From assembly GCA_015227615.1 (NCBI GenBank), contig JAALGZ010000001.1, forward strand, positions 3,224,001 to 3,288,000: a DNA stretch of 64,000 bases, read 5' to 3'. Below are positions 12,613 through 58,900 of the stretch, piece after piece (the stretch's first letter is position 1; each line of letters opens with the position of its first letter). The notes beneath the pieces were generated by a model that did not search any database, was not told where the DNA came from, and was given only the letters and a program-made list of their open reading frames with translations. Both the position numbers and the translations under genes were made by a program. The DNA comes from Labyrinthula sp. Ha. Lineage: Eukaryota > Sar > Bigyra > Labyrinthulida > Labyrinthulaceae.

Positions 12613-12616
12613 GTGC

Positions 12617-12976
12617 TGTTATGCGAGATTTGATATCTTCTTGGGTCGCTTATTCCTTTTACTAATATATGTATTAAAGAGTAGGTTATATGGATATGCT
12701 GTAGCTCAAGTCGTGATATATCGTTATAAGAAAAATGACACGTCATTCTAATGCTGGTAGCCGGTAAAAAAACTTGAAATACGAACCGTTAGTGGCAGTT
12801 TATTAAGTCATAAAAAGCATTGTTATAAAAGGGAATTTATTTTTATTGTTCTACTGAAGTCTACGGCTGTTTATTTCTACTATATTTTACTGAAGTCTGT
12901 TTACTTTGAAGGCTTCTCGAAGGTCCTGGTTGCGCACGTCTTTTTTATATATTTACAAGGACGGAAAACCTCAATA
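12617..12976 (+). repeat. 5' LTR
   Basis: A 360-bp direct repeat of 19687-20046, offset by exactly 7,070 bp, and identical as far as I can read. It starts TGTTATGC and ends CCTCAATA, so it has the TG start but not a classical CA end. A TATAAAA box at 12824-12830 is the probable core promoter. The right end runs into two tandem copies of the 8-bp palindrome CAATATTG (12972-12987), where a primer-binding site would be expected. I see no obvious match to a tRNA 3' end there. Confidence 0.93.
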
Positions 12977-13095
12977 TTGCAATATTGAAAACTTTCCTGG
13001 GATATACGAAGATTCAGAGAGTTTTTTCAGGCAATTGATATTGAATATATATATAGGAAGTTACTTTCTATACGGGAATTTACTAGTCGAATATT

Positions 13096-16000
13096 ATGAG
13101 TGGGAGTGAGAAGGCTACTACTCCTAGAGCTATGAACCAAGCTCAAGTTAAAAAGATGCTAACCGATATGAACACTGAGCAGATGAAGATGCTCACTGCC
13201 CTTATGGGAAATATGATGAATCAAATGCCAGAGATCTCAGAACTGAAGGATTTCTCTGTGGAGAACATTAAGAAGTTTATCTATCACTATGAGCGTCTCA
13301 ATGAACAGCAAAGAAATGTGGTGGAGCTGAAGCAGAAACTATCCTTTTCAGTCTACGAAGCGATGGATGATCTGGGACGTACAGGGTCGAACGAAGCCAT
13401 CATAACTTACTTGAAAGGAAAACTAAAGAAGAATAGAACAAGAGAGGATCTAACAGCGGGAGAACTTATAAAGAAATATGTTGTGTTCAGGGAGGATATT
13501 GATCCCTTTGAAGCGGTGGATTTGGTGTTTAAGAAGGTGGACAAGATCTTAAAGGAGCTTCCTGAGGGTTCGAAGCTGAAGCCTAAGCAAATTGCGAAGG
13601 CTATTTTTTCTATTTTGCCTGGCTATATATGGGTTCGAAATAAGGACCTGGAGATGCGTGGTGATTTAGAGGGAAAGGATAGGAGGCCTCTCAAGAAGTA
13701 TGTTCTCTCCTGCATACCCCCGATGCATTTAATCGAGAAGTCGAAGATTTTAGCTAACATGGAGGTGGGAGTAAGGAAAATGGGGAGTGAGGATCAAGTA
13801 TATGTGGAAAAGTACTTGTGTTTGTACTGCTACTGTTTCGGCCATCATGAACAGAGATGCTGGATGAAGAAGCAGGGGAAGCCGAGGTCAGAGAAGCCAG
13901 AAACAGGAGTGTTAAATGAGAGATGGAATAAGTATATTGAAAGGTGGAAGAAGAAGAAACAGGAGGAGAAGAAAAAGAATGAAGAACCCCAACAAGTGGA
14001 GAAGGTTGAGCAGGTGGGAGATACACACTCGATTTTGTCTGGCCTAACCGAGGCTATGAATAGGACACAGCTGACGGCCGAGGAGGAGAGCTCACCCGGA
14101 ATACCGAGGAAGTCAAATATGAATAAGATCAAGGGGGAAGAGGGATATGATGGTGTTGATCATAATCAGTATGTGAATGAGCTCTTCGGAAGTGACATGA
14201 TGCTGAAGACGATGAGGGACGAGATAGTGAAAGAAATTGAAAATGGACCACAAGAGATAAAATATTCGAGAGTGCAGCGTGATGCAGAAGTGAGAGTACA
14301 GATAAATGGGAAAAAGGAAGTATTTTTTGCACTCTTAGACAGTGGTGCTTTTAGAAGCGCGATGAATATAAAACTGAAGCCATTTTGTACGGAGGTTTTG
14401 GAGCTTGAGAATTCGATAAAAGTTGTAGCAGCTGGTGGGTCAACTTATGAGGTTACAGAGGTCGGATATCTGAAGGAGGTGAAGCTGTTTGTGGACTCGA
14501 ATGTTTATTTTTTGCTGGATGTTTATGCCATGATACTTGATGTCGAGAAATGGGATGACATCATCATCGGCAACGATGTGTTGAAGAAGCATCGGTTAGA
14601 TCCGGTGTCGGCACTGAGGCACAAGCTTAGGGCTGAAGGAGGTGGTGTGAAACATATTGGCGAAGGTTCTGTTCTTGTTGACTGGTTTATGCGCAAGGTA
14701 GTGGATGCCCCGGTGGTGACGAAAGTGATTGAGGAAGAAGAGGATTTCACGGGTGCGTATGAGGAGTGGAAGAGGAACCAGGGTTTTAACCAAGGGCAAG
14801 TGGAACCGATAGATAGTGGGGACACAGTGGAAGAGCCTGCGGACTGGTGCGACGAGTGGGGAGCGTATATTTCGATGGGTGACGGAGAATCCTTTGGAGC
14901 AAGCGACAGAATACAAATTTCAAGATATGAAGCATCCGCGGAGGAGGAACTGGAGCACCTAGTGAGGGCTATCAACTGGCCGGCCAAGTTGTGTAATGAT
15001 GAGCCAGTGGGCTTTGATGCCGATGAGGAAGAGGAGGAAGAGCTGGATCCAGATGGTCTTATTGACGTAGGAGCTAATTTGGATGTAGACGTGAAGGAGG
15101 ATAGGAAGCGTATGGCTGAAAAGTTACTTAAAATGGTTAACGACTTGGATTTGGAAGTTTTCGAGGGTTCTGAGAAATGGAAAGAAAGATTCACAACTTT
15201 ATTCTTACAACATAGCGGTTCATTCGGAGACTCAGAGTCTCCCACAATTTTATCTGATTTACCTCCGATAGAGTGCCATCTAAAGGAAGGGAAAACAGTG
15301 GGTGTATTGAACCAGCACCCTTTAGGCTTCGAACAGGAGCAGTTTTTAAATAAGAGGCTTAAACAGATGTTAAAGGCCGGCATCATTAGGGTGAATAAAA
15401 ACCCTACTACGGCAATGGCGGTACTCATAGTACCGAAAAAGGGACCTAAAAGGTTCCGCCTGGTCGTTGATTTTAGACCTTTAAATAAAATCACAAGAAA
15501 GGTTAGTAACAGTTTACCGAAGATTGAGGTACAATTAGCTAGAGCCAGAGGTATGAAGTTCTTTAGCTCATTTGACTTACTTTCAGGGTTTGACTACCTA
15601 CCCTGCACTGCAGAAACTGGCAAGTTATTCACCTTCACTACGCCGTCTGGAGTGGCCTACAGCTTCAATGGAGCACCTCAGGGCTGGTGCAACACGCCGT
15701 CTTTATTTAGCATGCGTCAGATCCACGAGGTACTGCAGAATGTGGGCACATGGCCGGACTATAGTATGCAGTGGATTGATGATACAGTGTTGATGACATC
15801 ATCTCTTAGGGAACTTTATGATATACTAGAAAGGTACTTGAAGAGAATTAAGCAGCTGAATCTGAGATTAAACGTTGATAAGTGTAAGCTCTTGGGGCTG
15901 AGTGCTGACTTTTGCGGTAGAACATTAGATGGAGAAGGGCATAGGTACGATGATTCTTATGCTGAGGAATTGTTATCTAGAGCAGATCCGCAATACGCAC

Positions 16001-19000
16001 ATGAACTAGCTCAATTCATTTACACAGCTAACTTTTTGTGTTCTATATTGCCGGGTTTCTCCCGATTGAGACATATAATCACAAAAAAGTGTAACATAGC
16101 TGGAAAAATAAAAACGCTGGAGAGAAAGATGATAAAGATTACATGGTCGTCAGAGATGAGGAATGCATTCGAGGAGCTTAAGGAAGTATTAAAGAAATCA
16201 TTGAAGAGAACTCTTGGGTACTACAACCACTTAATCCCAACGTACATTTTCTGCGATGCCAGCGATCTATACTGGAGTCTTATAATAGCGCAAACAGAAG
16301 AAGAGGTTGATACCGCTGATCCGTACTCGAGCCAATACAAAGTCGTAGCTATGAACAGTGGAACATTTAAAGGGTCCTCGCTGAAGTGGCATATTAGCTC
16401 GAAAGAGCTATTTCCTGTGGTAACAGCTCTCAAGAAATACCCGTATTATTTGTTGTACAATTTCCAGGATACCATTTTATTTACGGATCACCGTAATTTA
16501 GTGGGAATCCTCTCACCCAAACAGGTGCGTATCAAAGCTTATGCTTCCAGGTTAGGAAGATGGGCAGCAGATTTTATGACAATGAATCTCCGAGTTTTCC
16601 ACCTACCAGGTTACAGAAATATACCTCCTGATATTATTAGTAGATGGATGAATCCAGATGCTGGAAAGGCGGTGCAATCAGGGAAGATAATGAAGGTTAC
16701 CACGCGAGCTGAAGAAGAGTATTGGAGGCTGGTAGATAGCTTCCACGTAAGTGGGAGACACCCCAGTTGTACAGCACCAGCTGCTGCATCTTGGGGGGTG
16801 ATGGATGACTTGTTTATTTTGAAGATACAGCAGCGTGATGATGGAAGTTTAAAGGAGGTTTTGAGAGAAGGAGGGAAAGTTGTAGTAACGAGAAGTATGA
16901 TACCATATGTTTTGGTTCATACACATTCTATTTTCAACCATGGAGCGAAGAGGAAAGAGATTGAGTTCATTAGAAAGCAGTATGTTGTGCAGAAAGGATT
17001 GAAGGATTTATTTCTCAAGACGATAGTGAGGTTTCGCAGACAGTGCATGCACTGTCAGAGGAGATCGTTGATTGTACGCAGACCTTTGAACGTGACAGAA
17101 TTTGGAGATGAAGCTCGAAAAGTTATTTATTGTGATTTCCTTTATATCAATAAGTCTGGATGGATTTTGACCATGATCGACAGCTTAACTCGCACTACCT
17201 TATTACACCACTGTGTGAAGGTGGAGGCTAAGGAGGTGGTAAGAGCTCTTTGGAAATGGCATGCTTTCTTTCACCTGGCGCCTGAATTCTTTCTTGTTAC
17301 AGACCAAGGCAGCCACTTTGTTAATGCTGTAGTTCAGGAATTTCTTCGTAGCTGTAATGGAACGCATAGGGTGACAGCAGCATACATATCACAGACGGCT
17401 GGCACAGTAGAAGTACAGAACAGGGAAGTGTTGCGTCATCTCCGTTCGCTAGTGTCTGAGCTGGGGCTCCCATCTAATGCGTGGAGTGAGGTGGTATTGA
17501 TGGTGCAGATGTTCCTCAACTCTACCCCATTAAGCTGTAGGGGAGCAGATAATCGTTCACCTCTGGAGTTGTTGATGGGAATTAAACCTCGGGTAGCTCC
17601 TATTGGATCTGGGGTTTTGGAAGTTTCGAAGAGGGATACGGAGAGAATTGGTCAAGTAGCGCGAGATTTACAGGAAAGAATAAGGGTGTACCAGGAGAAA
17701 GCGTATCGTAAAGGCCTCTTATACAGATTTCAAGCGAATAAGAGAGCGAGTAAAGGGGTGAAACCTATTTGTTTTCACCCAGGAGAGTATTTGTTGTTAT
17801 CGGAAAAGGGGTTTGAATCAGGGCATAAGGATAAATGCCGCCCTCGCTGGACAGGCCCGGTACAAGTAGTTGAGATCGTGTCGCCGTCATTATATAAAGT
17901 AAAAGATTTAGAAGGGAAGACGAAGGTTCGCCACGCTAGCCTCTTGATACCGTTCGCACCAAGTAGCTTTCTACCGAGTGCTGATACACGGGCAGTGTGT
18001 ATTTTAGATCATGACAGATTAGAAGTGGATGAAATCGTGGACGTGAGGAGAACCGATGAAGGAGAGTTTCAATTTAAAATAAGATGGAGAGGTTTTGCTG
18101 AAGACCGAGATACGTGGGAAGCGGCTTCAGTGATGTTCGAAGATATTCCTATGGAGGTGGTTAAGTTCTTGAATGCGACTAGTTCGGATCTGAAAGTTGA
18201 GATAGTGGAATTTCTGAAGTTGTTGTTTCCAGACAGTCCTTATTGGCAAAACGTAAGAGTAGCTCAAATATGCAAATCGGAAGCTGATTGGTTAGCGGAG
18301 TTGAAGAAGAAGTTAGTGGATGATTTAGTAATAATCCGAGCTGATGGAAAGTTAATGCAACGTAATTGGAGTGTATATGAATTTGAAATCTTGAAGTGGT
18401 GTGTAAGAGTATATGGAATGGGAAGTTTTGAGAAGTTCAGGGTTCATTTACCCAGCAAGAATAAGCAGCAACTATATAATAAACTTCAACGTTACCTTTC
18501 GAAGCAAGCTCTGGAAGAATATCACGGGCTTCGTCTCACATTGGAAGTAGTAAGAAAGGAAAACTTACGTCATTTTGGACATCAATATCGTGTTTCAAAG
18601 CTGCCTTTAACTGGGAATCAGAGGATTATTCGAAAAGCTTTCGCTAGATGGAGATTTTCTAAGATGCATGAACGAAATTTAAGATGGAAAGAAAAGGTTA
18701 TTATTTCAAGAGTGCACAATTTGATGAGTATTGAGGGAGTTAAGAATGCGCTGTTTCAGGTGAAGAAGGATATTCAGGATGGAAAAACCCAGTGGAGTGG
18801 ATTTCCTACTTGGATGGGTAGTCTTCTTGAATTTAGGAAGCATCTCACAGATTTTTTGGAAGCGATTCTCGATAGGAAAAGGACTATAGATGAGTGCAAA
18901 ACTGAAGCATGTAAGCTGGTGAAATGGAAGTTCAGAGGGGAGAAGTTAAAGGTTAACGAATATGTGATGGAGAAGGCGTCTATTGTCAACTTAGTGAAAG

Positions 19001-19629
19001 TGAATGTTGTGGATTCAAACTTGATAATTTATATTTGGAAGAAACCAGCGGGATCGATAACTGCACGAATGCGAGTTCAAGATTACTTGGAAACAGTGAA
19101 ACCAAGGTTCCCTATAGTTGTAATGGATCCTCCATATAAGATATTTTCTACAGATCCAGTTCGTGGCCCACAGATTTCGTATAATGTTATGTCGGATGAG
19201 GATATTATTAACTTGGATTTAAGGAGACTGGGAACAGGAGTTGTTTATTTTATATGGACTTTGCCTTCAAAGAAAAACGTTACTTTGGAAATGATGAAGA
19301 GAAATGGTGTACAATACTTAGGAAGATTTCTGTGGATAAAAACTACTTCTAGAGGAAAAATAGTGTCATCGCAGGGTCTTGTAACAGGAACATGCTCAGA
19401 AGAATGCTTGATTGGATTGGTAGGAAACTTTCCGGGTAAATTAAAAACTCGTTTTTTCGGAAAGGAAATCCTATTTGGCCTTAGAGTTGGGAACTCTTGT
19501 AAACCGGTGGAATTCTATGACAGAGTTGATGGAATTTGTGAGGCTGGAGTGGAGAAGTTAGAACTTTTTGGAAGGAACAATAATATGAGAAAGGGGTGGA
19601 CTACCGTAGGTGATGAGGTAATGTTGTAA
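13096..19629 (+). CDS. Gag-Pol-chromodomain-SANT-MT-A70 polyprotein
   Basis: A single 2,177-residue frame, so Gag and Pol are made without a frameshift or stop read-through. The parts by residue are: Gag about 1-370 with a CCHC zinc knuckle at 242-255; aspartic protease around DSGA at 415-418; reverse transcriptase about 735-950 with the core WIDD at 893-896; RNase H about 1045-1150; integrase with an HHCC zinc finger at about 1275-1325 and a D-D-35-E core at 1347, 1403 and 1439; chromodomain about 1643-1692; SANT/Myb-like domain about 1757-1805; and MT-A70 domain about 1990-2165. Roughly 180 residues between the SANT and MT-A70 parts are charged and have no recognised family. The first ATG lies 119 bp after the 5' LTR. 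Several long antisense frames beneath it are shadows. Confidence 0.93.
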   Translation: MSGSEKATTPRAMNQAQVKKMLTDMNTEQMKMLTALMGNMMNQMPEISELKDFSVENIKKFIYHYERLNEQQRNVVELKQKLSFSVYEAMDDLGRTGSNEAIITYLKGKLKKNRTREDLTAGELIKKYVVFREDIDPFEAVDLVFKKVDKILKELPEGSKLKPKQIAKAIFSILPGYIWVRNKDLEMRGDLEGKDRRPLKKYVLSCIPPMHLIEKSKILANMEVGVRKMGSEDQVYVEKYLCLYCYCFGHHEQRCWMKKQGKPRSEKPETGVLNERWNKYIERWKKKKQEEKKKNEEPQQVEKVEQVGDTHSILSGLTEAMNRTQLTAEEESSPGIPRKSNMNKIKGEEGYDGVDHNQYVNELFGSDMMLKTMRDEIVKEIENGPQEIKYSRVQRDAEVRVQINGKKEVFFALLDSGAFRSAMNIKLKPFCTEVLELENSIKVVAAGGSTYEVTEVGYLKEVKLFVDSNVYFLLDVYAMILDVEKWDDIIIGNDVLKKHRLDPVSALRHKLRAEGGGVKHIGEGSVLVDWFMRKVVDAPVVTKVIEEEEDFTGAYEEWKRNQGFNQGQVEPIDSGDTVEEPADWCDEWGAYISMGDGESFGASDRIQISRYEASAEEELEHLVRAINWPAKLCNDEPVGFDADEEEEEELDPDGLIDVGANLDVDVKEDRKRMAEKLLKMVNDLDLEVFEGSEKWKERFTTLFLQHSGSFGDSESPTILSDLPPIECHLKEGKTVGVLNQHPLGFEQEQFLNKRLKQMLKAGIIRVNKNPTTAMAVLIVPKKGPKRFRLVVDFRPLNKITRKVSNSLPKIEVQLARARGMKFFSSFDLLSGFDYLPCTAETGKLFTFTTPSGVAYSFNGAPQGWCNTPSLFSMRQIHEVLQNVGTWPDYSMQWIDDTVLMTSSLRELYDILERYLKRIKQLNLRLNVDKCKLLGLSADFCGRTLDGEGHRYDDSYAEELLSRADPQYAHELAQFIYTANFLCSILPGFSRLRHIITKKCNIAGKIKTLERKMIKITWSSEMRNAFEELKEVLKKSLKRTLGYYNHLIPTYIFCDASDLYWSLIIAQTEEEVDTADPYSSQYKVVAMNSGTFKGSSLKWHISSKELFPVVTALKKYPYYLLYNFQDTILFTDHRNLVGILSPKQVRIKAYASRLGRWAADFMTMNLRVFHLPGYRNIPPDIISRWMNPDAGKAVQSGKIMKVTTRAEEEYWRLVDSFHVSGRHPSCTAPAAASWGVMDDLFILKIQQRDDGSLKEVLREGGKVVVTRSMIPYVLVHTHSIFNHGAKRKEIEFIRKQYVVQKGLKDLFLKTIVRFRRQCMHCQRRSLIVRRPLNVTEFGDEARKVIYCDFLYINKSGWILTMIDSLTRTTLLHHCVKVEAKEVVRALWKWHAFFHLAPEFFLVTDQGSHFVNAVVQEFLRSCNGTHRVTAAYISQTAGTVEVQNREVLRHLRSLVSELGLPSNAWSEVVLMVQMFLNSTPLSCRGADNRSPLELLMGIKPRVAPIGSGVLEVSKRDTERIGQVARDLQERIRVYQEKAYRKGLLYRFQANKRASKGVKPICFHPGEYLLLSEKGFESGHKDKCRPRWTGPVQVVEIVSPSLYKVKDLEGKTKVRHASLLIPFAPSSFLPSADTRAVCILDHDRLEVDEIVDVRRTDEGEFQFKIRWRGFAEDRDTWEAASVMFEDIPMEVVKFLNATSSDLKVEIVEFLKLLFPDSPYWQNVRVAQICKSEADWLAELKKKLVDDLVIIRADGKLMQRNWSVYEFEILKWCVRVYGMGSFEKFRVHLPSKNKQQLYNKLQRYLSKQALEEYHGLRLTLEVVRKENLRHFGHQYRVSKLPLTGNQRIIRKAFARWRFSKMHERNLRWKEKVIISRVHNLMSIEGVKNALFQVKKDIQDGKTQWSGFPTWMGSLLEFRKHLTDFLEAILDRKRTIDECKTEACKLVKWKFRGEKLKVNEYVMEKASIVNLVKVNVVDSNLIIYIWKKPAGSITARMRVQDYLETVKPRFPIVVMDPPYKIFSTDPVRGPQISYNVMSDEDIINLDLRRLGTGVVYFIWTLPSKKNVTLEMMKRNGVQYLGRFLWIKTTSRGKIVSSQGLVTGTCSEECLIGLVGNFPGKLKTRFFGKEILFGLRVGNSCKPVEFYDRVDGICEAGVEKLELFGRNNNMRKGWTTVGDEVML
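18016..18171 (+). mobile_element. Chromodomain of the young element
   Basis: Residues about 1643-1692 of the polyprotein read as a chromodomain: VDEIVDVRR, then FKIRWRGF, then DTWE, with the aromatic and WE positions characteristic of the family. In chromoviruses this domain sits after the integrase core and steers insertion toward particular histone marks. Placement directly after the integrase C-terminal region agrees with that. Target choice in this genome is unknown. Confidence 0.85.
18358..18507 (+). mobile_element. SANT/Myb-like domain of the young element
   Basis: Residues about 1757-1805 fit the SANT/Myb pattern: a tryptophan and an acidic residue early (NWSVYEFE), a YG-containing loop (VYGMGSFEKF), then LPSKNKQQLYNKLQRYL, which aligns with the K-T-x-x-Q-x-x-x-K-x-x-x-x-L recognition-helix region. 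SANT and Myb domains bind histone tails or DNA. I do not know this domain from other Ty3/gypsy polyproteins. The matching sequence in the old copy at 60715-60865 argues that it is a real, conserved part. Confidence 0.65.
19060..19605 (+). mobile_element. MT-A70 adenine methyltransferase domain
   Basis: Residues about 1990-2165 carry the MT-A70 signature series in order: VVMDPPYKIF (DPPY at 2011-2014, the D/N-PP-W/Y/F catalytic motif of N6-adenine methyltransferases), SYNVMSDEDI, FIWTLP, FLWIKTT, EECLIGLVG and a C-terminal ELFGR...GWTTVG tail. The tail corresponds to the ELFGR/GW/LGNQ ending of METTL3-type enzymes. The family transfers a methyl group from S-adenosylmethionine to N6 of adenine in RNA or DNA. 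Whether this one acts on RNA, cDNA or host DNA cannot be read from the sequence. The motif order and spacing make a chance match very unlikely. Confidence 0.9.
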
Positions 19630-19671
19630 CTGAGTGGGAGATGTAATATCAATGTAATAAAAAACGGCAAT

Positions 19672-19686
19672 AAGGCGAGGGGGCGG
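19672..19686 (+). other. Polypurine tract of the young element
   Basis: A G-rich, almost all-purine run (aaggcgagggggcgg) lies immediately before the 3' LTR, where Ty3/gypsy elements keep the plus-strand primer. The location fixes the LTR start at TGTT. Confidence 0.75.
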
Positions 19687-20046
19687 TGTTATGCGAGATT
19701 TGATATCTTCTTGGGTCGCTTATTCCTTTTACTAATATATGTATTAAAGAGTAGGTTATATGGATATGCTGTAGCTCAAGTCGTGATATATCGTTATAAG
19801 AAAAATGACACGTCATTCTAATGCTGGTAGCCGGTAAAAAAACTTGAAATACGAACCGTTAGTGGCAGTTTATTAAGTCATAAAAAGCATTGTTATAAAA
19901 GGGAATTTATTTTTATTGTTCTACTGAAGTCTACGGCTGTTTATTTCTACTATATTTTACTGAAGTCTGTTTACTTTGAAGGCTTCTCGAAGGTCCTGGT
20001 TGCGCACGTCTTTTTTATATATTTACAAGGACGGAAAACCTCAATA
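19687..20046 (+). repeat. 3' LTR
   Basis: An exact-length partner of the 5' LTR, same orientation, with no difference seen. It is followed by GTGC, the same four bases that precede the 5' LTR, which marks a 4-bp target-site duplication. Its TATA box (19894-19900) points toward the malate dehydrogenase gene that starts at 20607, so the LTR could affect expression of that gene. Confidence 0.93.
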
Positions 20047-20050
20047 GTGC

Positions 20051-20606: not shown

Positions 20607-21654
20607 ATGCCGAAAGATAAGTTTAATGTGGCTGTGTTAGGTGCAGCAGGAGGTATTTTTCCTATGTATGTAACAATTTAGGAATTGGGCAACCACTATC
20701 ACTCCTAATGAAGCTGAGTGAGTACGTATCAACCCTTGTTCTATATGACGTAGTCCCTGTGGTACATGGAGTTGGTATAGTGTTTCTTACGCCTAATGCA
20801 TAGCTGCTGATCTATCCCACGTAGAAACTGGTGCTGAAGTCTTATCCTTCTGTGGGCCACTTAATGATAAAGAAGAGCAAGCTGTTCAAGCAAGAAGAGC
20901 TTTGGAAGGTGTTGATGTTGTTATTATCCCCGCTGGAGTTCCTAGAAAACCTGGGATGACAAGAGACGATTTGTTTAACATTAACGCGGGGATTGTTAAA
21001 GGGCTAGTGGAAGCTGTTGCTGATGCTTGTCCTGAGGCTTATCTTTGCATAATATCAAATCCAGTCAATAGCACCGTTCCAATTGCTGCCGAGGTCTTGA
21101 AAAAAAGAGCCGTGTATAATCAGAACAAGCTATTTGGAGTGAGTACTTTAGATGTTGTAAGAGCAAATACTTTTGTTGCACAAAAGTTAGCAGAAAAGGA
21201 TGCGACTGTCTCTGTCGCAGATATTAAAGTGAAAGTAATTGGCGGACATTCTGGAGTTACTATCATACCGCTTCTTTCTATGTTTAATCTCTCTGAAGAT
21301 GAGATTGACACTCTAACGACGAGAATTCAAAATGCGGGAACTGAGGTGGTTGAAGCTAAGCAGGGTGCAGGAAGCGCTACTTTATCCATGGCGTATGCTG
21401 GTTCTCGTTTTGCTGTCTCGTTGATGAAAGCACTTAGTGGGCAGAAGGATGTAGTAGAGTGCGCATATATTGAAACTAATATTAGACCAGAAGTGTCTTT
21501 TTTCGCCACTAGCATCAAACTTGGAGAAAACGGTATCGAAAAAGTCTTACCGTTAGAAAACTTGTCAGCAAAAGAAGAAGAAAAAGTAAAGAAAGAAGTT
21601 ATTCCAGCATTGAAGCAAGCAATAGACAAGGGGCTAGCTTTTGTGGCTAAGTAA
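20607..21654 (+). CDS. Malate dehydrogenase (NAD), mitochondrial-type clade
   Basis: Oxidises malate to oxaloacetate with NAD+. The protein is 329 residues from three exons: 20607-20652, 20682-20774 and 20804-21654. Both introns are 29 nt with GT-AG ends (20653-20681 and 20775-20803), and removing them restores the family sequence exactly: GAAGGIGQP of the nucleotide-binding loop (residues 12-20) and GVAADLSH. Substrate-binding arginines are visible in VPRKPGMTR (about 94 and 100), with the N-PVN-S block after that and the catalytic histidine in GGHSG (about 195). The sequence is of the mitochondrial/glyoxysomal type but starts directly at the Rossmann fold with no presequence, so a cytosolic or peroxisomal location is possible. 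The C-terminus FVAK is not a clear peroxisomal signal. The next ORF begins 6 bp after the stop. Confidence 0.96.
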
Positions 21655-55959: not shown

Positions 55960-58900
55960 TAGATTACCAAATGCAATCCTCGACAGTGGTGCCGAAAAAT
56001 CAGTTGCGTCGCTACGGGAGTATTTGTGGTTAGTGGAAGACGTGTGCGACGCATCGCAGAAAATTACATTGTTAAATGGCACAACCGACTTCAAAGTACC
56101 GAAAGTCGGCTATGCGAACTTCGAGGTGCGTATCAATGGGTAACAAAAAGAAGGTGGCACCGAGTCAAGATATACTTGGTAGATGCACCAGAATGGGATA
56201 AAGTTCATATTGGCGTACCAGCGCTAGTCGAGGCGGGCCTCATGTCCCATCAAAATGCTTAGGAAACATACAGCAGGATTCTCATCAATCCAGTGGGGCG
56301 CCAAACTTGCGCGAGTTACCTCATTGAAGATACCAAAGATATAGAAGCTCTGATCTTGAGTAAACTTTCGCGGTAGAAGTGGCTGCCGGAAATTGTAATA
56401 GTTAGAGTACCTTTAAAAATAATGCCTGGTGCCTACGCATACTCTACAAAACTTAACTACATTTTAGCTGAAATCATAAAACTCACTTATGAGGAGAGCG
56501 CCAATATTTTTCGAGCGCACTCATATTTCATCTTTACAAAAGATTTAACAAAAGCAACTCTGCGCCGACAAAAGTTTAAGGATGTAAAATTCATACGCAG
56601 GTATGGATTGTCGCGATTTGAAGTGATGGCCATGATAAGACTACTAACTGGATGAAAATTAGAAGTTATGAAGGAAGGTGATATTGTGCGCGCCGCATCC
56701 ATCGACTTTAGCAAAAGATTGCACGATAGAGATGTGGAGGGGTACCATTCGGTGAAGCCATCCACCTAAAACAAACAAAAGATGTGGTGGAAGATGATAA
56801 CTTGGAGCGCCTGATGGCACCTGACACCAGTGAGGAAGTAAATAAGGAAGTGGAAAGGGATAAATCAATGTCGTCATAAAGAAAATGGTCGGAGAAGCAA
56901 CCAACGTTACCGAAGCATAGTGCCAACACTTTTTAAGAATATGTCTAGCGTTTGAAGATATCTTCACCACTAGTGTATCGCAAACGTCAATAAGTTTGTT
57001 ACCGTCCATTGATGTGGTTCTGATAGAAGAAACGTCCTTTAAACTACCATCATCGCGCCCGCTGGGAGCGGGTAAAGTGGAGTTCATGAGAGAAAAATTG
57101 GAAGGCGTGGTAGATAAGGGTATGGTTAAGCAAATTCCACAAGTGATATATGGCTCAGTGGTCTTCACATTACCGAAGAATAATAATCAATGGCTCATGG
57201 TTTTAGACCTGGTCAGATTAAACAAAATACTTCACAGGGATGTAAACATGCTATCAATACTAGAAACGCAATTCGGCAACACAGAGCCGGTGCGATTCTA
57301 CGGATATTTTGATGTGGTCAATGTATTTGATCAGTTGGCAACCACTGAGCGTGCAAAAGAATATTTAATATTATGACGCGATACGGGATATATAAGTCGC
57401 AGTTTGTGCCGATGGGGTATCACAGTATCCAAGTATTCTTTCACCAGCGCATGGTAGATTACATAGCTGGCTCGCATGATGATGAGCAAGGAAATGGCAT
57501 AATACAATGGATCGATGATACCCTAATACACGCGGTTGGCTTTGATCACTTCATGAAAATACTAGAAGATGTACTGGCGAATCTAATAAAATGGAAAGTA
57601 CGAATAAGCCCATCAAAATCTATCGTATTCACAAAAAGTATCGAATACTGCGGGCGCGTCCTCGAGGATGGAGGGTGAAACTTCGTTAAAAAATACTATG
57701 AGAAAATTATATCCATACCAAAACCAGAGTATGCATTTGAACAACCAAAACTACTACACTTAGCACAATGGTTGACGGCGGCGGTTTCCCAGATAGCGGA
57801 GCTGAGGGACAAAATAATGCTGTTTTACCCGGAAATTAAGGGCAAGATGAAGGAGTTGTTAAAAGAAAAGAAGTGTATTATTGTGGAACGAGGAACTCGG
57901 CTCCACCTTTGAGGCATTTAAACAACGCTTGGTGGAGACGATAAAGAAGCGCCTTCAGCACTATGACAGGGAAATGGACTTGATCTTAGTCACTGATGTG
58001 TCCGATAATACCACAACGCAATTGCATTTCAGTGAAGTCCTGAAAAAATAGAAAGAAACCTACTAAAAAAGGTGGTTTGACCAATGATGTTTTTCAACAG
58101 AAAATTTGATGCCGCCCAGTTAGTATGGGGAATATGTCACAAGGAATTCTATCCGATAATAAGGACATTCCATAAACCGTTCTATCAACTACCGTTTCAC
58201 CCAACGGCGGTACAGGTTCACACAAATCACCTGAATTCAAAGACAATACTTCAGGGGGGGCTCTAAAATAAATCATGGGTACCTTAACCGCCTACAAAGA
58301 TGGATGATTATTTTGCAGCATGTCTTGTTAGATGTTCACCATATTGATAGCGACAGCAATATATTCGTCCACATGCTTACGAGGTAGGCAGCGCCCCAGG
58401 AATCGCTTGGACGATCAATGAGAAGAATACGTTAAATATCCGCGCCATAGCAAGAAGGTGAGGATGATCTGCGCCAGGCAGTGTGTAATTCATACCTTGA
58501 GGCACTTTCAATATACACAGAAAAAGGGACCTCACTAATGGGGGGGAACCCTATGGTACAGAATTAAAAGGGGTTTTGACATTTTAACCATTGGAAAATA
58601 TAAGCCGCCAAGGTAAAAATGGTGAAGAAACGTAATTTTGGATGAAGATAGAAGATACTTTGTCCCTCCATCGGAAGCACAACTGTGGCACCAAGTTAGG
58701 AGGATCTCCTCGGCCAAACGAAGACCACCGCAACAATCGGACATTCTAAAACAAGTGTAGCATCAAGTTATCGCGGAATAGATAACAGAAGAACTGGGCA
58801 CTCACTCAATTGACAATTACCCCTGCCATGCGGGAATGATCCCCGGCAATGAGGATCCGGAAGACCCCTGTCATATAATATGGGAACCGGATATAGACGA

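What the first reader, a model, noticed from the sequence alone, without database searches (positions are those of the whole stretch)
19060..19605. MT-A70 adenine methyltransferase fused to a Ty3/gypsy polyprotein
The C-terminus of a whole, recently inserted LTR element carries the complete series of MT-A70 motifs, DPPY through the ELFGR/GW tail, in frame with integrase and chromodomain. Retroelements with cytosine methyltransferases have been reported; I do not know of a described Ty3/gypsy family with an N6-adenine (METTL3/IME4-like) enzyme. Possible roles include marking element RNA (m6A) to change stability or packaging, marking cDNA, or writing a 6mA chromatin state read by host factors. 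The enzyme motifs are seen directly; the role is inference.
Basis: partly seen in the sequence, partly recalled or inferred. Interest (0 to 1): 0.93.

Follow-up and report, generated by a model that had tools for sequence, protein, structure and literature searches.

The report
Retrotransposon carrying a DNA-adenine methylation writer
A diverse group of jumping genes in one unidentified eukaryote genome carries, fused to its own copying machinery, relatives of two parts of the cell's DNA-adenine-methylation complex, which suggests that these elements write their own epigenetic mark.

Summary
The fusion is real. A complete Ty3/gypsy element lies at 12613-20050: LTRs identical at 360/360 positions, exact GTGC target duplication, one 2177-aa ORF ending in a full MT-A70 domain (Pfam E=1.4e-19). 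It is no chimera: 150 of 150 scored MT-A70 candidates in this genome pass the cut-off, and all 20 other loci fetched are related elements, 18 with LTR pairs 93-100% identical.

The interpretation needs correcting. The enzyme scores closest to MTA1/AMT1, the eukaryotic DNA-6mA writer (4e-32), not METTL3 (5e-13), and shares AMT1's PxRG loop; a domain tree alone does not settle this. The module is under purifying selection in the best pair tested and its trees are congruent with RT.

Most likely (inferred): the element writes 6mA on its own DNA to stay transcriptionally permissive. Ten literature searches showed no MT-A70 or p1 retroelement; the nearest precedents are gypsy-DNMT3 and DIRS-Dam.

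The parts
12613..12616 (.). target site duplication GTGC, left copy
   Evidence: identical to 20047-20050
12617..12976 (+). 5' LTR, 360 bp, TGTTATG...CTCAATA
   Evidence: identical to the 3' LTR at 360 of 360 positions; other copies of this LTR elsewhere in the genome at 78-93%
13096..19629 (+). single gag-pol-p1-MTase ORF, 2177 aa
13819..13860 (+). gag-type CCHC zinc knuckle CX2CX4HX4C (aa 242-255)
   Evidence: pattern match; naming it gag is from general knowledge
14290..14595 (+). aspartic protease (aa 399-500, LLDSGA at 413)
   Evidence: Pfam Asp_protease E=0.0038, below its cut-off; DSG motif
15430..15918 (+). reverse transcriptase (aa 779-941)
   Evidence: Pfam RVT_1 1.1e-20; Ty3 polyprotein 2.8e-22 and Ty3 RT 4.2e-22 in PDB
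16237..16572 (+). RNase H (aa 1048-1159)
   Evidence: Pfam RT_RNaseH 7e-16
17116..17385 (+). integrase core (aa 1341-1430)
   Evidence: Pfam rve 1.2e-7, 32.4 bits against cut-off 32.6
18022..18135 (+). chromodomain (aa 1643-1680)
   Evidence: Pfam Chromo 3.1e-8
18361..18570 (+). p1-like Myb domain (about aa 1756-1825)
   Evidence: best PDB match Tetrahymena MTA1c p1, 2.2e-7, next unrelated 0.025; p1 profile made without element sequences hits this ORF at 6.4e-11
19108..19617 (+). MT-A70 (AMT1/MTA1-like) adenine methyltransferase (aa 2005-2174), DPPY at 19126
   Evidence: Pfam 1.4e-19; Tetrahymena MTA1 4e-32
19672..19686 (+). purine-rich tract next to the 3' LTR (possible PPT)
   Evidence: sequence read directly; function inferred
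19687..20046 (+). 3' LTR, 360 bp
20047..20050 (.). target site duplication GTGC, right copy

Best explanation
A Ty3/gypsy chromodomain LTR retrotransposon lineage took in relatives of two subunits of the eukaryotic DNA 6mA writer, the Myb protein p1 and the MT-A70 enzyme AMT1/MTA1, and keeps them fused behind the integrase and chromodomain. SHOWN: the anatomy, the homology to p1 and MT-A70, the wide spread across divergent families with near-identical LTRs, purifying selection in the best pair tested, and co-inheritance with RT. INFERRED: the p1 part binds DNA and the MTase puts 6mA (probably at ApT) on the element's own cDNA or freshly integrated copy, alone or with the host's AMT partners; because AMT1-written 6mA accompanies H3K4me3 and permissive chromatin in other eukaryotes, this would help a new copy escape silencing and stay transcribed.
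For: p1 profile built only from Tetrahymena p1 and the two host p1 genes hits 21 of 21 element ORFs at E of 2.2e-9 or better. For L011 the p1 homology runs over 140 aa, past the Myb, through the (R/K)(R/K)N.xIINTG motif (4.9e-19). The element Myb profile matches p1 over positions 4-85 at 80 bits, the next Myb only over 5-54 at 56 bits. MT-A70 profile: MTA1 232 bits, METTL3 156, METTL14 95, METTL4 71, MTA9 54. PxRG loop in all 22 element domains shown, in host AMT1 and Tetrahymena MTA1 (L015 reads PTGG), in none of METTL3, METTL14, METTL4 and 5 phage enzymes. Of 150 scored MT-A70 hits, 100 have a scored p1 hit 0.3-2.5 kb upstream on the same strand, 1 on the other side. L011/L014: dN/dS 0.06 in MT-A70 and 0.03 in Myb at dS 0.19. 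RT, MT-A70 and p1 distance matrices agree (rho 0.70-0.75, 0 of 2000 permutations each). p1 and p2 co-occur only with AMT1, and 6mA goes with H3K4me3 and transcription (PMC12695648, passages, Discussion). Own stand-alone AMT1 and two p1 genes exist in the host.
Against: No methylation data and no activity test. The MT-A70 tree does not separate AMT1 from METTL3/14 as nearest kin (AU p 0.33-0.43 for every grouping tried), and 4 of 24 element domains score higher with METTL3 than with Tetrahymena MTA1. A whole subclade has DPAW in place of DPPW/Y (7 of the 26 copies whose motif I read) and one copy DPPG. L015/L016 show dN/dS 0.77 in MT-A70 (4 S, 11 N changes). AMT1 in ciliates needs MTA9/AMT7 and p2 as well; I did not look for them in the host. 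In species mapped so far 6mA is not enriched in TEs (PMC12695648). ApT is not over-represented in the element.
Confidence: 0.55

Rival explanations
1. Targeting module: p1, chromodomain and the MTase fold are used mainly to tether the integration complex to 6mA- or H3K4me3-marked host chromatin, perhaps by joining the host's own AMT complex; catalysis is secondary.
For: The module lies directly behind integrase and chromodomain in one ORF; one subclade has DPAW and one copy DPPG; the insertion lies about 560 bp upstream of an intact malate dehydrogenase gene.
Against: 18 of the 26 copies read keep DPPW/Y, and the invariant columns of the domain include D, P, K, P, E, F, R and W of the catalytic and cofactor motifs; DPAW also occurs in 2 of 5 phage MT-A70 enzymes fetched. 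One insertion site is no evidence of targeting.
Confidence: 0.18
2. RNA m6A writer: the enzyme marks element RNA to change stability, packaging or translation.
For: MT-A70 family; 4 of 24 domains score slightly higher with METTL3 than with Tetrahymena MTA1; the tree does not exclude it.
Against: Host AMT1 outscores METTL3 in 24 of 24; PxRG loop; fusion to p1, which accompanies AMT1 and not METTL3 (PMC12695648); the host shows no METTL3 or METTL14 better than its AMT1 or the elements (six-frame searches, exon by exon, capped lists).
Confidence: 0.1
3. cDNA protection: 6mA on the cDNA shields it from a host nuclease or editing defence, as discussed for cytosine methyltransferases in PMC5890265.
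For: Enzyme travels in the polyprotein with RT and IN; the idea is raised for DNMT elements (passage).
Against: No adenine-sensitive eukaryotic defence was looked for or found here; AMT1-type enzymes act on double-stranded chromosomal DNA in the organisms studied (general knowledge).
Confidence: 0.1
4. Passenger or artefact: a chance capture without function, or an assembly chimera.
For: Some copies are decaying (L016 DPPG with dN/dS 0.77; L041 frameshifted).
Against: At least 150 MT-A70 hits, LTR pairs in 18 of 20 fetched loci, dN/dS 0.06, identities down to about 25% with all motifs kept.
Confidence: 0.03

Closest known systems
AMT1/MTA1 complex (MTA1c: MTA1, MTA9, p1, p2) of ciliates and other eukaryotes
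   Same: MT-A70 domain and p1 Myb region are homologous to MTA1 and p1
   Different: two subunits fused in one retroelement polyprotein behind integrase and chromodomain; no MTA9 or p2 part seen in it
KnitGypsy-Dnmt3 and SymbioLINE/SymbioDIRS-Dnmt elements (PMC5890265, passages seen)
   Same: retrotransposon Pol ORF with a DNA methyltransferase under purifying selection; one of them is a Gypsy element
   Different: C5-cytosine DNMT3 family, unrelated fold family to MT-A70; no p1-like subunit reported in the passages seen
DIRS elements with Dam-like adenine methyltransferase (cited in PMC5890265)
   Same: retroelement with a predicted DNA N6-adenine methyltransferase
   Different: Dam-like bacterial type in elements with a tyrosine recombinase; here MT-A70/AMT1 type with p1 in an integrase-bearing LTR element
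Sola1-type DNA transposon with ParB plus N4C/N6A methyltransferase in Ectocarpus (PMC12477816, passage seen)
   Same: eukaryotic transposon with DNA-binding part plus predicted adenine/cytosine amino-methyltransferase
   Different: DNA transposon, separate prokaryote-type accessory protein on the opposite strand

Membership tests
Ty3/gypsy LTR retrotransposon with chromodomain | paired LTRs and target site duplication | tested here: met
   360/360 LTR identity, GTGC repeats
Ty3/gypsy LTR retrotransposon with chromodomain | order protease-RT-RNaseH-integrase-chromodomain in one frame | tested here: met
   protease (E 0.0038) and rve (32.4 of 32.6 bits) are below their cut-offs in the window, but rve is found in 18 of 18 and Chromo in 16 of 18 other polyproteins
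Ty3/gypsy LTR retrotransposon with chromodomain | RT nearest to Ty3 | tested here: met
   among solved structures Ty3 entries 2.8e-22 and 4.2e-22, level with a caulimovirus-type enzymatic polyprotein 2.1e-22; no RT tree with named elements was made
MT-A70, AMT1/MTA1 clade | DPP[WY] catalytic motif and cofactor motifs | tested here: met
   window DPPY, KP.E.Y, ELFGRNN
MT-A70, AMT1/MTA1 clade | best sequence and profile score with AMT1/MTA1 | tested here: met
   host AMT1 above METTL3 in 24 of 24, Tetrahymena MTA1 in 20 of 24
MT-A70, AMT1/MTA1 clade | groups with AMT1 to the exclusion of METTL3/14 in a tree | tested here: inconclusive
   TE+AMT1 p-AU 0.433, TE+METTL3/14 0.327, TE alone 0.428
MT-A70, AMT1/MTA1 clade | 6mA activity on DNA | not testable with these tools
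   no methylation data
p1 (AMTP1) subunit | Myb domain with the p1-specific C-terminal extension | tested here: met
   the IINTG part is clear in the L011-type elements and not in the window clade
METTL3 (RNA m6A) | best score with METTL3 | tested here: not met
   (4 of 24 score above Tetrahymena MTA1 but none above host AMT1)
METTL3 (RNA m6A) | CCCH zinc-finger N-terminal domain and METTL14 partner | not tested
   no METTL14-like host gene surfaced
DNMT-carrying retroelement | C5-cytosine methyltransferase domain (PF00145) | tested here: not met
   no such Pfam hit in the ORF; the two PF00145 places in the genome are elsewhere
DIRS with Dam | tyrosine recombinase instead of integrase | tested here: not met
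   rve integrase core present

The most novel reading that the evidence does not exclude
An old lineage of Ty3 elements carries a mobile reader-binder-writer module (chromodomain, p1, AMT1) and uses it to write and keep its own 6mA state; with at least 150 copies of the enzyme in one 51-Mb genome, the elements, not the host's single AMT1, may be the main source of 6mA writers, and the 6mA pathway here has become a battleground of the kind known so far only for 5mC.
Probability: 0.4. Interest if true: 0.93.

Novelty: new variant of a known kind. Interest (0 to 1): 0.87.

Why it matters
A survey of 231 eukaryotes describes MT-A70 families as static and the 6mA-AMT1 pathway as aimed at endogenous genes, in contrast to 5mC (PMC12695648, Discussion read). 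Here both a catalytic and a DNA-binding component of that pathway have been taken up by retrotransposons, diversified to about 25-30% identity and kept under selection. It gives a natural, self-contained p1-AMT1 fusion for biochemistry, a direct way to ask whether 6mA protects transposons, and a caution: MT-A70 counts in eukaryote genomes may include transposon genes.

Tried and rejected
Chimera and passenger readings: rejected. METTL3-like reading: disfavoured by scores, PxRG loop and p1, not excluded by the tree. Giant-virus or phage origin: phage MT-A70 enzymes are more distant (51 phage records, best bits 69) and fall on one side of a starred branch (96/97) with METTL4. Single-sequence structure prediction failed (mean pLDDT 33), so no fold search was made. 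ApT enrichment: none. One or two captures: unresolved; RT, MT-A70 and p1 trees all part the two architectures, TE-alone clade not rejected.

Limits of the counts: one search used all 150 rows, 18 rows that one search lacked, all 150 rows and 126 of 138 rows (12 second fragments of the same places dropped); all those lists are capped, so the pairing figures are lower bounds. Of the 27 RT places with neither partner I looked at 2: L040 has the p1-like domain and its contig ends before the MT-A70 would come, L041 is a frameshifted copy with both. Trees used 17 of 21 elements (L012, L013 near-copies and L017, L020 truncated dropped); one search dropped seven rows (L002, L003, L005, L006, L007, L016, L027), which changed the TE group from one to two label changes, partly because L008 had been counted as TE.
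Full report
1. The observation. The ORF at 13096-19629 reads protease, RT, RNase H, integrase, chromodomain and MT-A70 in one frame. Protease and integrase are below their Pfam cut-offs in the window but the integrase model hits 18 of 18 other polyproteins. MT-A70 is complete: 172 of 172 profile positions, E=1.4e-19. The element is whole and young: LTRs 12617-12976 and 19687-20046 agree at 360 of 360 positions and a GTGC duplication flanks them. It lies about 560 bp upstream of an intact malate dehydrogenase gene that has two 29-nt introns.

2. It is one of very many. A PF05063 search of the own genome (50.8 Mb, 153 contigs) found 354 candidates, scored 150, and all 150 pass the cut-off; 33 lie in frames of 1700 codons or more. 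I fetched 20 such loci. All 20 have RT and MT-A70 in one ORF, and 18 have LTR pairs with 93.3-100% identity (the two without, L015 and L017, are cut by contig ends). Clean duplications are visible in that table for L013, L020 and L022 as well. MT-A70 identity to the window falls to about 25% and RT identity to about 29%, so these are old, separate families, most with recent insertions. The window's own LTR family has other copies at 78-93%.

3. The second component. The stretch between chromodomain and MT-A70 is a p1-like Myb domain. Window: best solved structure is p1 of the Tetrahymena MTA1 complex, 2.2e-7, the next non-p1 match 0.025. L011: 4.9e-19 over 140 aa, reaching beyond the Myb through the IINTG motif. 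The profile of element domains matches p1 over its whole length (positions 4-85, 80 bits), other Mybs only over positions 5-54 (at most 56 bits). A p1 profile made without any element sequence hits 21 of 21 element ORFs at 2.2e-9 or better. Pfam's own Myb model sees only 6 of 18. Genome-wide, 100 of 150 scored MT-A70 hits have a scored p1 hit 0.3-2.5 kb upstream on the same strand, against 1 at the same distance downstream; 99 of 126 RT places have p1 and/or MT-A70 behind them; of the other 27 I looked at two and both carry the p1-like domain.

4. Which MT-A70? Window domain: MTA1 4e-32, METTL3 5e-13, METTL14 4e-10, METTL4 0.11. Profile: 232, 156, 95 and 71 bits. For 24 element domains the host's stand-alone AMT1 beats METTL3 in 24, Tetrahymena MTA1 does in 20; in the four L011-L014 copies METTL3 scores a few bits higher than the Tetrahymena protein. 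A P-x-R-G loop after the catalytic motif is shared by the elements (L015 has PTGG), the host AMT1 and Tetrahymena MTA1, and missing in METTL3, METTL14, METTL4 and five phage enzymes. Against this, the domain tree leaves the order of elements, AMT1 and METTL3/14 open; no grouping tried was rejected (p-AU 0.327-0.433). p1 is the tie-breaker: p1 and p2 co-occur only with AMT1 in the survey PMC12695648 (passage).

5. The host has its own set: a 327-aa ORF for AMT1 (L008/L037) and two p1 genes (L034, L035). Queries with METTL3 and METTL14 returned that AMT1 and element copies as best hits, so no orthologue showed itself (capped six-frame searches). Two PF00145 genes exist. No light-harvesting gene was found.

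6. Selection and inheritance. L011/L014: dS 0.188 and dN 0.012 in MT-A70 (0.06), 0.03 in the Myb, 0.10 over the ORF; L013/L014 0.07. Against: L015/L016 0.77 in MT-A70, where L016 has DPPG. For distant pairs dS is saturated. Trees of RT, MT-A70 and p1 for 17 elements share their clades, and distances correlate at rho 0.71, 0.70 and 0.75, with 0 of 2000 permutations as high. So the module has descended with the RT.

7. Two architectures. In L009-L017, L021 and L024 the DSG protease motif lies between p1 and MT-A70, while in the window, L018-L020 and L025 it is N-terminal; L022, L023 and L026-L028 showed no such motif in the longest frame. The RT tree parts the same groups. Seven of 26 copies read have DPAW, 18 DPPW or DPPY, one DPPG; DPAW also occurs in two of five phage enzymes, so it need not be inactive.

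8. Mechanism. Shown are anatomy, homology, spread and selection. That the enzyme acts on DNA is inferred from AMT1 and p1 kinship. That it acts on the element's own copy, and that the result is permissive chromatin, is inferred from the link of 6mA with H3K4me3 and transcription (PMC12695648, Discussion read) and from the parallel with DNMT elements (PMC5890265, passages). Ichthyosporean p1 is said there to carry a PHD histone-reading domain; the element's chromodomain next to p1 is a comparable pairing.

9. What is known. DNMT3 in DIRS, LINE and Gypsy elements and Dam-like enzymes in DIRS; a ParB-methyltransferase protein in Sola; TET/JBP in fungal DNA transposons (PMC12730594, passages). Ten full-text searches listed no paper on MT-A70 or p1 in retroelements; the library holds open-licence papers only, and the 2016 review that I recall as most relevant is not held. 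Hence: a new variant of a known kind, the methyltransferase-carrying retrotransposon, with an unusual two-subunit capture.

Noticed in passing
L009-L017, L021, L024: The aspartic protease motif (LLDSGA and the like) sits between the p1-like domain and MT-A70 instead of in the N-terminal part: a relocated protease.
   Followed up: partly
L002, L003, L005, L006, L007, L009, L010: A subclade has DPAW instead of DPPW/Y at the catalytic motif while scoring among the best with the Pfam model.
   Followed up: partly
L039 1-1430: The 18S rRNA gene is interrupted by a long insertion that looks to me like an R2-type non-LTR element (impression from the sequence, no search made), and the 5.8S is very divergent (53.5 bits).
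   Followed up: no
20653-20681 and 20775-20803: Two putative 29-nt introns in the malate dehydrogenase gene: very short introns for this host.
   Followed up: partly
L034: One host p1 gene has a long C-terminal extension (FQRVRLQFSDKSWYDGTIVKV...) that looks Tudor-like to me; not tested.
   Followed up: no
56921-57376: A decayed stretch resembling a gypsy reverse transcriptase (KNNNQWLMVLDLVRLNKIL); Pfam gave no hit.
   Followed up: no
G000 as a whole: No METTL3 or METTL14 orthologue surfaced although AMT1 and two p1 genes are present.
   Followed up: partly
G000:C77:362853 and C121:1129060: Two C5-cytosine methyltransferase-type genes (PF00145), so the host may also have 5mC or only a Dnmt2-like enzyme.
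   Followed up: no
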